From a virus, in IMG/VR virus record IMGVR_UViG_3300005613_000020, positions 1 to 64,000 of that record: a stretch of DNA of 64,000 bases. One strand, given 5' to 3'. A program made the translations under genes and the position numbers. Positions within the stretch are counted from its first letter, which is position 1; the number at the start of each line of letters is the position of its first letter. This document shows positions 7,545 through 18,774 of this stretch, piece after piece. Under the pieces are notes generated by a model, which made no database searches, was not told where the DNA came from, and saw only the letters and a program-made list of their open reading frames with translations.

Positions 7545-9992
7545 TTAATCAACAAGAGTTCTCCCAAGAATTCCTTTGTCAACATCCCATTCAACTTCAG
7601 TAGCAGGAAGTTCAACTCCTGTTCTTACACCAGTTAGTCTAATAAGACGACGTTTTTCTTCAATGGTTGCATTCTCAGTTTTTGATATTATCAGGCATTG
7701 ATCTACAGCTTGAGCAAAGGCAAAAGAGTATCCAACCTCGTCAATAGAAGGAGTTTCCTTTTCTGTAGATCCTCTACCAAGTTGGTTGGAAGCAAGAACA
7801 ACAATGTTTCTAGATGTAGCAAGTGACTTCAATCCATATGTGACATTCATAACCTTCTCCCATGTATTGATATTCTTCTTGCTATCCTTGATAAGATATA
7901 TTCCGTCTACTACTACAATATCAGGTTGAAACTTCGCTGTTATATCTTCAATGCTTCCTAGAGTAAGCGCCTTCTTATAAGCATCTCCTACAACGGACAT
8001 CCAATCAGATCTATCAGATATTTGCTCCAACCAATCCTTATACTCCGTTGGATTTGAGAGTGTTCCTCTAACCAATCCCATATTAGAAAACTCATAACCT
8101 GTGATCTTTCCCATGATTGTATCCCAACGTGCCTCTAGTTCAACGATAGATAGCTCTGGTGAGAAAAATAGAACCCTTTTGCCTAGGGAGTATGCAATGC
8201 ATGATAGGTATAGAGCAAGCCAGCTGTTATGTACTACTAATCCATTAGCTATAAAATTATGGTTTCCCTCTATTTCTAGATCATACGTATTATCATAGTT
8301 GCAATTCTTGCGTATAGTGGAAACCTTATCAAACCATAGTTCTGATGTAGATAAGTTTTGCAAAACAGTAGAATCATATTTCTTAGCAAATGAGGATAAA
8401 GTTTTTCTTGGGCAAGCTCTTTTACCGTCTTGCTTATAAACATCCTTTCTTGGTATCCTAGAAGCTTTCCAAAAATAATCTGGTCTTTCATCCCTTATTA
8501 TTTTTCTTATCTCCATTGGAAATGTAGAATCTCTTCGTCTTCTCCCGCAATAGCTGCTGTAGAATTCTTCAAACTGAGCCAGCTTGTCTCCTATTAAGTG
8601 TCTACCTACAGTGTTTCTAAACTTTTCTATAATTGTTGGATCATTTAGTTTTACTCTAATCGTATGTTTATTAGGATATATTTTAGACGGAATACCTAGC
8701 CTGTGAAGCATAAAAGAAACTTGAGATAACAGTTTTTCAGAGCAACTATCGTAAGCAATGTAGGTTTTAACTTCCCCGTCTCCACACCACATAGCTCCCA
8801 ATAAAATAGCTATTTGATTCGTATCTAGTTCATACACAAAATTCTCCAATGTCTTATCTATTGATTTATGCCCCCATAACCCTACCTTTTCTAAAAGTTC
8901 TCTTAAGCCGTTATGCCTTTCTCCACCACCTCTAATTTCGAAACTTCTACCTTCTTGTTTAATTGATGAAAACCAAGCCTTTGGATATAAGAAATTTATG
9001 AGACTTCTGAACCTTCGGTTAATCTCCAAATCATATGCTGTAAAAGAGGGCAACAAACAACATCCGTCAGAAATCATATATCCCAGTATTTCTAATTCTT
9101 CGTTTGATAGAAAGCATGATGTTTCTGATTCTAGAAGGCAGCTTGGTCTTATGATTGATTCCCCCTCTTCCAAATCTTCAACTTTGATCCAGCCCCTAAG
9201 AGTAAATACAGGATGATTTTTTGTTAGTTTAATAGATAATCCACTATCAAAGGATACTTCATAGATTTCCTTTTTCCCGTTATCTATAACATCAATGACC
9301 TTGCACCAGGAAAACTTGTAGTTATTTTCATCTATGCTTTGAACTACATCTCCCAATACAACATCCTCTATATTTATATAACCGCGCTTAGTCCAAACTT
9401 TGGACCCTTTGCATAAGCATTTTCCACGTTTTGTAGAACCAATAACTCCCACTAAATTGCCTGGCAACCAGCTTACTCCAAGTTCGTCAAGAATTTCTAG
9501 GCCAGTAGGAATGCCAATTGGTTCACCATGCTTAATTGCTTCTACCTTTTCAATTAGCCTATCAATTCTCTCAATTGCATCTCTGTCTGTATAGCTTCTA
9601 CCGTAATCTGCATCTGGCCTAAGTTCGGATAGATTGCTTATCAGATACTCAAGTGAATCTAGTGGCTTCTCTTCTTCCATTAGTAGTTCGATTCCCCGCT
9701 CTAAAACAGATTGCATTGACCTAGATGTTTGAGCCTTAATCAGCTCAGATATATGCCATTCAAGCTCGTCTTCAATTACTGTGTCGGACTTGAAGCTATC
9801 AAACTTCTTCTCTAGAACTTGTATAGAAGGAACCTTTCCCTCATAGTTCCTAGAAAACTCCTCCACAAATTCATAGACTGGAAGCAGCTCTTGAAAGGAG
9901 TTAGGACTAATTCCCTTATCTCTGAGATCTACAAGCTTGTCAAAGGAAATTATTGATGAAATAACATATCTCTCTAAATCAATTTGATCCAT
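7545..9992 (-). CDS. dnaB: DnaB-type replicative helicase interrupted by an intein
   Basis: Hexameric ATP-dependent helicase of the phage replisome. The precursor is 815 aa; without the intein it is about 417 aa, normal for a phage DnaB. The N-terminal domain is residues 1-130. The RecA-like core has Walker A split as GSTKRGK / SWLAL, Walker B PDIVVVDGIYLI, a QLGRGS motif and a C-terminal arginine-finger region (RLTGVRTG). The intein lies between the Walker A Lys and Ser, so the helicase is inactive until splicing. The last four codons overlap no neighbour; the class II promoter lies just downstream. Confidence 0.95.
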   Translation of the reverse strand: MDQIDLERYVISSIISFDKLVDLRDKGISPNSFQELLPVYEFVEEFSRNYEGKVPSIQVLEKKFDSFKSDTVIEDELEWHISELIKAQTSRSMQSVLERGIELLMEEEKPLDSLEYLISNLSELRPDADYGRSYTDRDAIERIDRLIEKVEAIKHGEPIGIPTGLEILDELGVSWLPGNLVGVIGSTKRGKCLCKGSKVWTKRGYINIEDVVLGDVVQSIDENNYKFSWCKVIDVIDNGKKEIYEVSFDSGLSIKLTKNHPVFTLRGWIKVEDLEEGESIIRPSCLLESETSCFLSNEELEILGYMISDGCCLLPSFTAYDLEINRRFRSLINFLYPKAWFSSIKQEGRSFEIRGGGERHNGLRELLEKVGLWGHKSIDKTLENFVYELDTNQIAILLGAMWCGDGEVKTYIAYDSCSEKLLSQVSFMLHRLGIPSKIYPNKHTIRVKLNDPTIIEKFRNTVGRHLIGDKLAQFEEFYSSYCGRRRRDSTFPMEIRKIIRDERPDYFWKASRIPRKDVYKQDGKRACPRKTLSSFAKKYDSTVLQNLSTSELWFDKVSTIRKNCNYDNTYDLEIEGNHNFIANGLVVHNSWLALYLSCIAYSLGKRVLFFSPELSIVELEARWDTIMGKITGYEFSNMGLVRGTLSNPTEYKDWLEQISDRSDWMSVVGDAYKKALTLGSIEDITAKFQPDIVVVDGIYLIKDSKKNINTWEKVMNVTYGLKSLATSRNIVVLASNQLGRGSTEKETPSIDEVGYSFAFAQAVDQCLIISKTENATIEEKRRLIRLTGVRTGVELPATEVEWDVDKGILGRTLVD
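8226..9419 (-). other. Intein with LAGLIDADG homing endonuclease in dnaB
   Basis: The 398 residues run from Cys192 of the precursor to the Asn of VVHN, followed by Ser as +1 nucleophile. Splicing block A is CLCKGSKVWTKRG, block B is LTKNHPVFT, and the C-terminal blocks are NTYDLEIEGNHNFIANG and VVHN. The two dodecapeptides EILGYMISDGC and ILLGAMWCGDG define a LAGLIDADG endonuclease. All splice residues are present, so it should be active. Confidence 0.95.
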
Positions 9993-16439: not shown

Positions 16440-16917
16440 TCAACTTCTCCTACCTATCTTATGATAATCTGAAATGATGTCCATCACTAGACTTTCAGCA
16501 GCATCATAATCAGGATGTGCTGGCCAACGGACTTCTATCGTAAGCATCCTCAGCTCTCTTGAAAAGTCTTTCAGCTTCTTCCTTGACTTGTTCTAAGGAC
16601 CATTCTCCTCTCTTGATGTTCTTGAGAAGTTCAGCATCGTCACGGAAGACATGAAATTCTCCCTCATGTAGAAATTCAACGCACATTCGCATGATCCTAA
16701 CCAGATGAGCAGCATTCTTTACGTCGAAGCCGAACTTATCTACAAGATACTTCCTCTTCTTTCCTTGATACCCCTCGAACTTATAATGCTCCATCCTCTT
16801 GCTTTGACCGTAAGCATACCCACAAAAGGCATGATAGGCTTGCTTAGAAACGAATATCATTCGACTATCAATTAGCCGTTGACCATAGGGATGAATATGC
16901 ACATAGTCATAAAAATT
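16440..16917 (-). pseudogene. Nucleotidyltransferase, C-terminal half (split and frameshifted)
   Basis: Downstream part of the gene split by the IscB element. It resumes with NFYDYVHIHPYGQRLIDSR, in frame with the N-terminal half if the element is removed. A second lesion exists: at GG 16524-16525 the frame runs off to TGA at 16510 (RSPLASTS), whereas deleting one G gives SPLPAHPDYDAAESLVMDII to TGA at 16440, which looks like the natural C-terminus. An ORF can start at ATG 16923, but that ATG lies in element DNA. Confidence 0.8.
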
Positions 16918-18166
16918 AGGCACAGGAAACCACGGGGCTTGCCCCGTGGAGGAATGTGCCCCTCCTTTCTGTTAAAGTTGTTGTTCTTGCTTTTAACCTT
17001 GTGCAATCTTTCTTTACATTTACTGAAGGACTTATTGTATTGCCTTCCAAGTCTGATATAGCAAAAAAACCTGTACTTCTTTTACCCTTGACAAATCCAA
17101 TACCCTTTGGGGTTTGAATGTAATCAAACTTCCTCAACCCAAACAGTTTGCCAGTTGGGATTTTCTTTTCACTTCTACTGCCTTTAGTTTGCCGATAATC
17201 ACCTTTAGCAACATGCTTCTTGAAATAAACGCTATCAGACAAACTGACGACTTCACCTTCCTCACAGCATATTGCTACAGCGTCAAAATTATGAGACTTG
17301 GGTAATTGTAAGATTTGTTCTCTCTTGAACTTAGTCTCATATCCAAATGTTTCTTCAAAAGCACCAAACTGCTTTTTTAATTGAGACTTCACAATCCCAA
17401 CTTCAGTAGCATGTTTTGTTTTACTTCTTACACCTCTAATTTGAAACTCTCCGTTGTGCAACTTATCATGGCAACCTTCACATAAAGTAATTAAATTGCT
17501 TGGAGTATCTGTTCCTCCATTACTTCTAAAAACAATATGATGAACGTGCAACTTACCTTTCTTGGTTTTGCATTTCTGGCATTGATATCCATCACGATGC
17601 AAAACATAGGCTTTTACATTATAGAATCCTTTTTGATTGCCTTTCTGGTAATCCCACCTACCAACTTCAGGGTTGGATATTTTATGAATATCAAAACTTG
17701 CTGTTTCCACTTTCCAAATGGTTACAGGCAATATTGATTCAACAAACTTCTTTTCCCTCAGATGAGAATCAACTTTTGATTTAATGCTTGGTGCAAGCCT
17801 TCCATTTTTTCGCATAGAAGCTCTGTTCTCCCAACGTGCCTTTCTATGCCTTGTTTTCCTCCCCCTTCTGTTTCTGCGATACATTTTTCTTTGTTCCATC
17901 TTCTTTGAAACATCTTGTCTGACCTGAACTTCTGATTGATAAGCTACTTTGCCGTTTGCAGTAGCAGCACAACCAATCGTTTTGCTGCCTGTGTCCATAC
18001 CAGCAACGACTTCCTGTGTGTTTTCTTCACAATCCCATAATAGTTTGATTGTGAATGGGGTCCGTTTAATTACCTTTGCTTTACCTGCTTTAAGCAAATG
18101 TTTTGCTTTAGTAGGCTTACAGGGCATCAAAGGATTTCCGTTCTTATTGATTACATACACATACAT
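16916..18166 (-). CDS. iscB: IscB RNA-guided HNH/RuvC nuclease
   Basis: Transposon-encoded ancestor-type relative of Cas9. The N-terminal PLMP domain (NGNPLMPCKPTKAKHLL) is followed by RuvC I VVAGMDTGSKTIG (Asp near residue 58), an Arg-rich bridge helix (MYRRNRRGRKTRHRK), RuvC II WKVETASFDIH, an HNH domain (YQCQKC, LHVHHIVFRSNGG, LITLCEGCHDKLH; about residues 190-236) and RuvC III PKSHNFDAVAIC. All catalytic residues are present and 416 aa is normal length. Start ATG follows AAGGAGG at nine bases. The C-terminus reads through the right-end hairpin, and the TAA stop uses two bases of the target gene. No TnpA transposase is present. Confidence 0.95.
   Translation of the reverse strand: MYVYVINKNGNPLMPCKPTKAKHLLKAGKAKVIKRTPFTIKLLWDCEENTQEVVAGMDTGSKTIGCAATANGKVAYQSEVQVRQDVSKKMEQRKMYRRNRRGRKTRHRKARWENRASMRKNGRLAPSIKSKVDSHLREKKFVESILPVTIWKVETASFDIHKISNPEVGRWDYQKGNQKGFYNVKAYVLHRDGYQCQKCKTKKGKLHVHHIVFRSNGGTDTPSNLITLCEGCHDKLHNGEFQIRGVRSKTKHATEVGIVKSQLKKQFGAFEETFGYETKFKREQILQLPKSHNFDAVAICCEEGEVVSLSDSVYFKKHVAKGDYRQTKGSRSEKKIPTGKLFGLRKFDYIQTPKGIGFVKGKRSTGFFAISDLEGNTISPSVNVKKDCTRLKARTTTLTERRGTFLHGASPVVSCA
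16930..16949. repeat. Right-end hairpin of the iscB element
   Basis: Perfect 9-bp stem CCACGGGGC/GCCCCGTGG with a TT loop, identical to the left-end copy. It is translated as part of the IscB C-terminus. Confidence 0.92.
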
Positions 18167-18445
18167 GGCTTTAAGCCTCCTTGTGTATTAGGATTATGCG
18201 TATTTCCAAGCTCGGAGTACTTGGAAAATCCGACTTCCTCTCGACAGATATGGAAAGGTTTAACGATACAATCACTGTCCCTCACCACTTCAGAACTGTT
18301 TAGATTGCATCCGTAGAGCAAGCCACTGAGGCGGCATAGCTTGGTACCTAATTTCTTTCCTATCGTTTCTAACATTTTTCCTCCGGTTAGTGTCTGGTAA
18401 CCTGTGGCTTTCTTTCAAAAGCCACGGGGCTTGCCCCGTGGTAGG
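18167..18445 (-). ncRNA. Omega RNA (HEARO-type) region upstream of iscB
   Basis: IscB guide RNAs are transcribed from the element's left end into the start of iscB. This 280-base non-coding stretch shows nested pairing on the minus strand: GTAACC with GGTTAC around the end hairpin, GGCTTT/AAAGCC, and further inverted repeats such as TTTCCAAG/CTTGGAAA. An open frame (MLETIGKKL...) crosses it but looks like a shadow. The guide would come from bases just outside the left end, around 18446-18464. Confidence 0.78.
18422..18441. repeat. Left-end hairpin of the iscB element
   Basis: Same 20-bp perfect palindrome as at 16930-16949, in the same orientation. It forms the first stem of the predicted omega RNA. 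Confidence 0.92.
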
Positions 18446-18774
18446 TTACTCTCTCTAAGCCACAGCAAAGCATTGACATTTGGATTGCCTTTTAGAAGAA
18501 GGTGGACATACTTCCTAATGTCGTAGGCTACGGAATCCCATTCGTTGTAATCCCTTTGAATGGTTCCTCTATCCTTCTTTCCATAGTTGCATACACCAAT
18601 ATAGTTGGTTAATGGACTAACATAAATGGTCATAATGTCCTTGTCATCAATACCCTCATCTTCCGTATGGGGGATATAGGTTCCATGAGACATACTTCCT
18701 ACATATCCTGTAAGGATACTTCCGTGGGGGATAAGATATTCAGTTTCTTCTAAACTGAGTCCTGGTAGTTTCAT
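18446..18774 (-). pseudogene. Nucleotidyltransferase, N-terminal half (RlaP-like)
   Basis: HGSILTGYVGSMSHGTYIP followed by DEGIDDKDIMTIYVSP has the GS...D-x-D pattern of the polymerase-beta-type nucleotidyltransferases of RNA repair (RlaP, PF10127-like). It is followed by KKDRGTIQRDYNEWDSVAYD and ALLWLRES, then the IscB element. As sequenced, translation would end nine codons into the element. Intact, with the 16440-16917 part, it would be about 265-270 aa, a normal length. Confidence 0.8.

What the first reader, a model, noticed from the sequence alone, without database searches (positions are those of the whole stretch)
18167..18470. Omega RNA whose guide would target the interrupted gene itself
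In IscB systems the guide is taken from DNA just outside the left end. Here that is the 3' end of the N-terminal half (bases around 18446-18464). IscB would therefore cut empty copies of the same gene in co-infecting phages or in rejoined genomes, driving homing or excluding rivals.
Basis: inference. Interest (0 to 1): 0.65.

Follow-up and report, generated by a model that had tools for sequence, protein, structure and literature searches.

The report
IscB transposon guide records its insertion site
A phage gene has been split by a small mobile element that carries an RNA-guided DNA-cutting enzyme whose guide spells out the very spot the element sits in; that is how this class of element is known to work, and the less expected part is that its relatives usually sit exactly in front of a gene's start codon.

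Summary
A HEARO/omega RNA (RF02033, 90.9 bits, cutoff 83) lies at 18449-18229 on the minus strand, followed by an intact iscB (18166-16916). The element spans 16911-18449 (1539 bp). It begins right after the N-terminal half of an RlaP-family nucleotidyltransferase gene and ends at ATGA, where the C-terminal half resumes. Joining the flanks restores the frame (LLWLRE|NDYVHIHP), colinear with an uninterrupted homologue. The guide is therefore 18450-18465 (CTGTGGCTTAGAGAGA), and the rejoined site reads guide-ATGA; an NTGR motif follows all 37 related right ends examined. So the omega RNA would target the interrupted gene.

This is the textbook OMEGA design. Homing or exclusion in phages remains inference: no empty copy with the matching target turned up, and the nearest empty homologue has 5 mismatches in 14 guide positions and no motif. 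No TnpA is encoded in the 96.9-kb record.

An unasked-for result is stronger: 18 of 29 ATG-flanked relatives sit exactly before a gene's start codon (9% expected). They carry a Shine-Dalgarno-like motif before a right-end hairpin, and iscB often stops close to that start codon. The window copy, inside a gene, is the minority case.

The parts
16911..18449 (-). whole mobile element (HEARO/omega RNA + iscB), 1539 bp, left end at 18449, right end at 16911
   Evidence: blastn similarity to 13 close relatives begins at 18449-18452 and in most of them ends at 16910-16897; flanking DNA unrelated
18450..18465 (-). predicted 16-nt guide CTGTGGCTTAGAGAGA, outside the element, in the 3' end of the N-terminal half of the split gene
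   Evidence: position directly 5' of omega RNA base 1; 16-17 nt guide at this position in solved IscB (PMC9640706)
18229..18449 (-). HEARO/omega RNA scaffold
   Evidence: RF02033 90.9 bits, full model; covariation in 41 of 55 pairs
18167..18228 (-). conserved 3' extension of the omega RNA (hairpin + ATACGCATAA motif) and iscB ribosome-binding site AAGGAGG
   Evidence: same motifs in relatives' leaders
16916..18166 (-). iscB, 416 aa; PLMP, RRXRR bridge helix, RuvC and HNH; catalytic residues D58, E154, H209/H210, H292, D295 present
   Evidence: PF14239 E 3.7e-62, PF01844; alignment A1; aligned to solved IscB
18422..18441 (.). left-end palindrome CCACGGGGCTTGCCCCGTGG (also part of the omega RNA)
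   Evidence: the repeat finder D1/I1
16918..16961 (-). right-end hairpin, same palindrome core as the left end
   Evidence: RNA fold -29.8 kcal/mol, z -3.9
16961..16966 (-). AGGAGG, Shine-Dalgarno-like, directly 5' of the right-end hairpin
   Evidence: AGGAG/GGAGG at this place in 21 of 25 non-archaeal elements, in all three iscB frames, 1.8% background
16907..16910 (-). ATGA, target-adjacent motif, first bases of the right flank
   Evidence: NTG(A/G) at this place in 37 of 37 elements
18450..18774 (-). N-terminal half of the interrupted RlaP-family nucleotidyltransferase gene
   Evidence: PF10127 E 1.5e-10
16510..16910 (-). C-terminal half of the same gene; its ORF also ends early through a frame shift in its last stretch (about 16520-16530)
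   Evidence: joined protein raises PF10127 to 5.1e-15; 57% aa homologue L031 colinear across the junction

Best explanation
This is an IscB/HEARO (OMEGA, IS200/IS605-type) element without its own transposase that inserted in front of ATGA inside a phage RlaP-family nucleotidyltransferase gene. SHOWN by sequence: omega RNA, intact IscB, end palindromes, precise ends, guide = last ~16 nt of the left flank, ATGA motif at the right junction, restored reading frame on joining the flanks. INFERRED: the omega RNA is transcribed together with the split gene, so that its 5' guide copies the flank; IscB loaded with it cuts any DNA carrying guide + ATGA, i.e. the same site without the element (after excision, on a sister genome, or in a near-identical co-infecting phage); repair from an occupied copy puts the element back. 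Movement to new sites would need a TnpA supplied in trans, by the host or another element.
For: HEARO model match; covariation; IscB domains and catalytic residues aligned with solved IscB (residues D61/E193/H340/D343 of OgeuIscB from PMC9640706); ends located by blastn to relatives with unrelated flanks; NTGR at 37/37 right ends, matching the NTGA motif measured for the related IsrB (PMC9581776); in-frame rejoining and colinear empty homologue; three Methanosarcina orthologues of the L018 left flank that lack the element (L090-L092) carry ATGA at or within a few bases of the junction point; elements of 86% DNA identity sit beside unrelated genes, so the family moves; TnpA absent from this record but present in two host genomes of relatives.
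Against: No cleavage data. No uninterrupted copy with the exact target was found. The C-terminal half carries a further frame shift, so the gene may be a decaying pseudogene (or the assembly has an error), and re-cutting to restore occupancy is not shown to have happened. No recognisable promoter shows that the guide is transcribed.
Confidence: 0.85

Rival explanations
1. Phage homing or exclusion device: IscB has become a guide-programmed homing endonuclease kept by the phage to convert or destroy co-infecting relatives at this gene.
For: TnpA is absent, the nuclease is intact, and TnpB has been shown to act as a drive between IS+ and IS- plasmids (PMC11870625). The same phage carries an intein with a LAGLIDADG domain in its DnaB-type helicase, so homing-type elements live here.
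Against: No second phage with this element in this gene; relatives sit in different genes. Homologous genes are too diverged to be cut; TAM-proximal mismatches at guide positions 1-14 abolish OgeuIscB cleavage (PMC9640706).
Confidence: 0.25
2. Dead relic: a one-off insertion in a gene already being lost, with no present function.
For: The split gene is further frame-shifted; no TnpA; single copy.
Against: iscB is uninterrupted with all catalytic residues; omega RNA scores above the gathering cutoff; both ends intact. Decay does appear in relatives such as L007, L026 and L027, not here.
Confidence: 0.12
3. Intron-like (IStron) element removed from RNA so that the gene is not lost.
For: Length 1539 = 3 x 513 and exact rejoining in frame.
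Against: No group I or II intron family matched in Rfam; the same length and ends occur in relatives that lie between genes, so in-frame length has no general meaning.
Confidence: 0.03

Closest known systems
HEARO RNA (RF02033) / IscB OMEGA systems
   Same: Same RNA family above cutoff, RNA 5' of iscB, guide at its 5' end, RuvC + HNH + PLMP protein, fixed motif at the right junction
   Different: No TnpA in the record; only about 40% identical to the nearest IscB in named phage records, so a separate clade; nothing categorically new in anatomy
DtIsrB and other IsrB (PMC9581776)
   Same: NTGA-type motif 3' of the target, RuvC, PLMP, omega RNA
   Different: IsrB lacks HNH and nicks; this protein has HNH and is expected to cut both strands
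TnpB gene drive of IS200/605 elements on plasmids (PMC11870625)
   Same: Guide records the insertion site; the nuclease removes or converts empty copies
   Different: TnpB (Cas12-like) with the guide at the other end of the element; demonstrated in plasmids, not phages
HEARO nucleases in viral genomes (PMC9755519)
   Same: Already reports HEARO/IscB in viral genomes and their rare association with TnpA
   Different: The passages I read do not describe target choice at start codons
Intron or intein homing endonucleases of phages
   Same: Would act on the empty allele of the same gene
   Different: Fixed protein-read target; here the target is RNA-guided and changes with each insertion; gene function is not preserved by splicing

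Membership tests
HEARO / omega RNA (RF02033) | match above the curated cutoff over the whole model | tested here: met
   90.9 vs 83 bits, positions 1-211/211
HEARO / omega RNA (RF02033) | conserved secondary structure | tested here: met
   55 pairs, 41 with compensatory change in 16 sequences
IscB nuclease | PLMP, RuvC I-III, arginine-rich bridge helix and HNH | tested here: met
IscB nuclease | RNA-guided cleavage of guide + motif DNA | not testable with these tools
   needs in vitro cleavage
IscB nuclease | guide taken from the left flank and motif at the right flank | tested here: met
   left ends constant, flanks variable, NTGR at 37/37 right ends; start of the RNA itself not measured
IS200/IS605-type transposon | subterminal palindromes at both ends, no target duplication, fixed target motif | tested here: met
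   gap-free in-frame rejoining
IS200/IS605-type transposon | Y1 transposase TnpA | tested here: not met
   none in the 96.9-kb record; so a non-autonomous derivative at most
IsrB | absence of HNH | tested here: not met
   HNH PF01844 E 1.5e-11
IStron | group I intron in the element | tested here: not met
   no Rfam intron match
Homing element | occupied and empty alleles of the same gene in related genomes | tested here: inconclusive
   only a 57% aa empty homologue without the target; no occupied relative in the same gene

The most novel reading that the evidence does not exclude
This IscB clade is built to sit between a gene's leader and its start codon without silencing the gene. The NTGR motif is usually the downstream gene's own ATG plus the next base, and the guide is that gene's leader. 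The element supplies a replacement ribosome-binding site brought next to the ATG by the right-end hairpin (or placed directly before it in archaeal relatives), and in many members iscB terminates within about nine bases of, or overlapping, the start codon, allowing translational coupling. RNA-guided re-cutting would then defend a nearly harmless seat. The window copy is a misplaced, gene-breaking example.
Probability: 0.4. Interest if true: 0.6.

Novelty: new member of a known kind. Interest (0 to 1): 0.38.

Why it matters
It gives a clean phage example, with both junctions, guide, motif and restored frame, in which the prediction that IscB re-cuts its own empty site can be tested directly in a laboratory phage. 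The comparison also exposes a testable rule for where this clade inserts (immediately before start codons) and how it may avoid harming the gene behind it.

Tried and rejected
Searched for empty sites: the C-terminal half alone found no relative in viral contigs; the joined protein found one diverged homologue; exact guide + NTGA gave one hit in an unrelated gene. An intended empty-site proof in Methanosarcina was only partly usable: the two flanks of L018 come from different loci (rearranged), so only its left flank could be compared, and the junction alignment is not exact in every orthologue. IStron rejected (no intron). A coding explanation for the AGGAG conservation was rejected because the motif falls in all three iscB frames. 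Literature: Weinberg 2009, Meers 2023 and Altae-Tran 2021 are not held; that HEARO sits before ATGA/GTGA is remembered from Weinberg 2009, not read. No held paper combined IscB with translational coupling, and the only one holding IscB, start codon, insertion site and TAM was unrelated.

Full report
WHAT IS THERE. The minus strand of 16911-18449 holds a HEARO/omega RNA (18449-18229, RF02033, 90.9 bits against a cutoff of 83) followed by a 416-aa iscB (18166-16916). The protein has the PLMP start, an RRXRR domain (PF14239, E 3.7e-62) and HNH. Its D58, E154, H292 and D295 align with the RuvC catalytic residues D61, E193, H340 and D343 of OgeuIscB (alignment; residue numbers PMC9640706), and the HNH histidines H209/H210 are present. 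Both ends carry the palindrome CCACGGGGCTTGCCCCGTGG. The 96.9-kb virus record holds one HEARO, one IscB and no Y1 transposase.

ENDS. Blastn of 10 kb around the element against related loci shows similarity that starts at 18449-18452 and, in most close relatives, stops at 16910-16897, with unrelated DNA outside. The closest relatives, L015 and L006, are 86% identical and sit beside other genes. At the right end every one of 37 elements is followed by NTG(A/G): ATGA mostly, ATGG in four, CTGA in four. This agrees with the NTGA motif measured for IsrB (PMC9581776). The left flank shows no fixed motif.

THE GENE. The left flank (18774-18450) is the N-terminal half of an RlaP-family (PF10127) nucleotidyltransferase and the right flank is its C-terminal half. 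Joining the flanks at 18450|16910 gives NVNALLWLRE|NDYVHIHPYGQRLID in frame, raises the PF10127 match from 1.5e-10 to 5.1e-15, and is colinear with an uninterrupted 57%-identical homologue in viral contig locus L031 (the DNA alignment printed was made with the left flank one base short, and the in-frame junction is read from the coordinates). Homologues of under 60% identity occur in 522 phage records, 302 of them covering at least 80% of the joined protein in one place. The C-terminal half also has a frame shift near its end (about 16520-16530), so the gene is broken twice, unless this is an assembly error.

GUIDE AND TARGET. In solved IscB the guide is the 16-17 nt directly 5' of the scaffold, and mismatches at the 14 motif-proximal positions abolish cleavage (PMC9640706). 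Here that guide is 18465-18450, CTGTGGCTTAGAGAGA, and the rejoined gene would read CTGTGGCTTAGAGAGA-ATGA. For this class of element that is the normal design: the guide records the flank and the nuclease cuts copies that lack the element. A drive of this kind is demonstrated for TnpB on plasmids (PMC11870625).

HOW FAR THE HOMING CLAIM GOES. The sequence does not show homing or exclusion. The only perfect 15-nt match in the record is the flank itself. One viral contig has 14 nt of guide + ATGA, but in a different gene. L031 differs at 5 of 14 motif-proximal guide positions and lacks ATGA (counted from the sequences). No other phage was found with the element in this gene. Homing, if it occurs, is limited to near-identical phages. 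Movement to new genes needs a transposase from elsewhere; TnpA genes exist in two host genomes of related elements.

AN UNASKED-FOR PATTERN. Among 29 ATG-flanked elements with both ends known, 18 have the ATG as the start codon of a downstream ORF of at least 60 aa, against 9.1% of ATGR sites in the same flanks (binomial p 2e-12); only 4 interrupt an ORF, against 51% of background sites. Earlier, cruder versions of the test agree. The window copy belongs to the minority. In many of the close relatives the iscB stop codon (TAA, TAG or TGA) lies 7-9 bases before the ATG; in several archaeal relatives the stop is the TGA of the ATGA or CTGA itself; in more distant members it lies about 20-35 bases upstream or overlaps. 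A Shine-Dalgarno-like AGGAG/GGAGG lies directly 5' of the right-end hairpin in 21 of 25 non-archaeal elements, in all three iscB frames, against 1.8% of equivalent windows; most Methanosarcina elements instead have GAGG a few bases before the ATG. In the window the predicted fold leaves AGGAGG next to a hairpin that is followed by UAAUUUUU-AUG. I infer, without proof, that the element brings replacement translation signals for the gene behind it. Elements share ancestry, so the p-values overstate independence, and a role of these bases in transposase recognition is not excluded.

VERDICT. Observation confirmed with small coordinate changes. Mechanism: ordinary OMEGA self-site targeting, very likely; phage homing or exclusion, possible but unsupported. 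New member of a known kind, with an interesting side result on insertion at start codons.

Noticed in passing
L004, L005, L006, L007, L009, L017, L026, L047, L048, L055, L058 and others: Related IscB elements sit exactly before the start codon of the next gene (18 of 29; 9.1% expected), with the guide covering that gene's leader.
   Followed up: yes
window 16918-16966; same place in 21 of 25 non-archaeal elements: Conserved AGGAGG directly 5' of the right-end hairpin, in all reading frames of iscB, followed by ATG about 8 nt after the hairpin: possible hairpin-bridged ribosome-binding site.
   Followed up: partly
L017-L019, L021-L025, L029: The iscB stop codon is the TGA of the target NTGA itself, so the reading frame ends in flanking DNA.
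   Followed up: partly
window 7545-9992 (-): DnaB-type helicase with an intein (Intein_splicing E 2.8e-21) and a LAGLIDADG domain: a second homing-type element in the same phage.
   Followed up: no
window about 16520-16530: Frame shift near the end of the C-terminal half of the split gene, compared with L031.
   Followed up: partly
L017 left flank, roughly 90-140 bases upstream of the left end: A mini-element with only the joined left and right ends (GTCAACTACCCC...GAGGGTTT-ATGA) and no iscB, suggesting mobilisation in trans.
   Followed up: no
L018: Left and right flanks of this Methanosarcina element lie at separate places in other species: recombination between copies or rearrangement.
   Followed up: no
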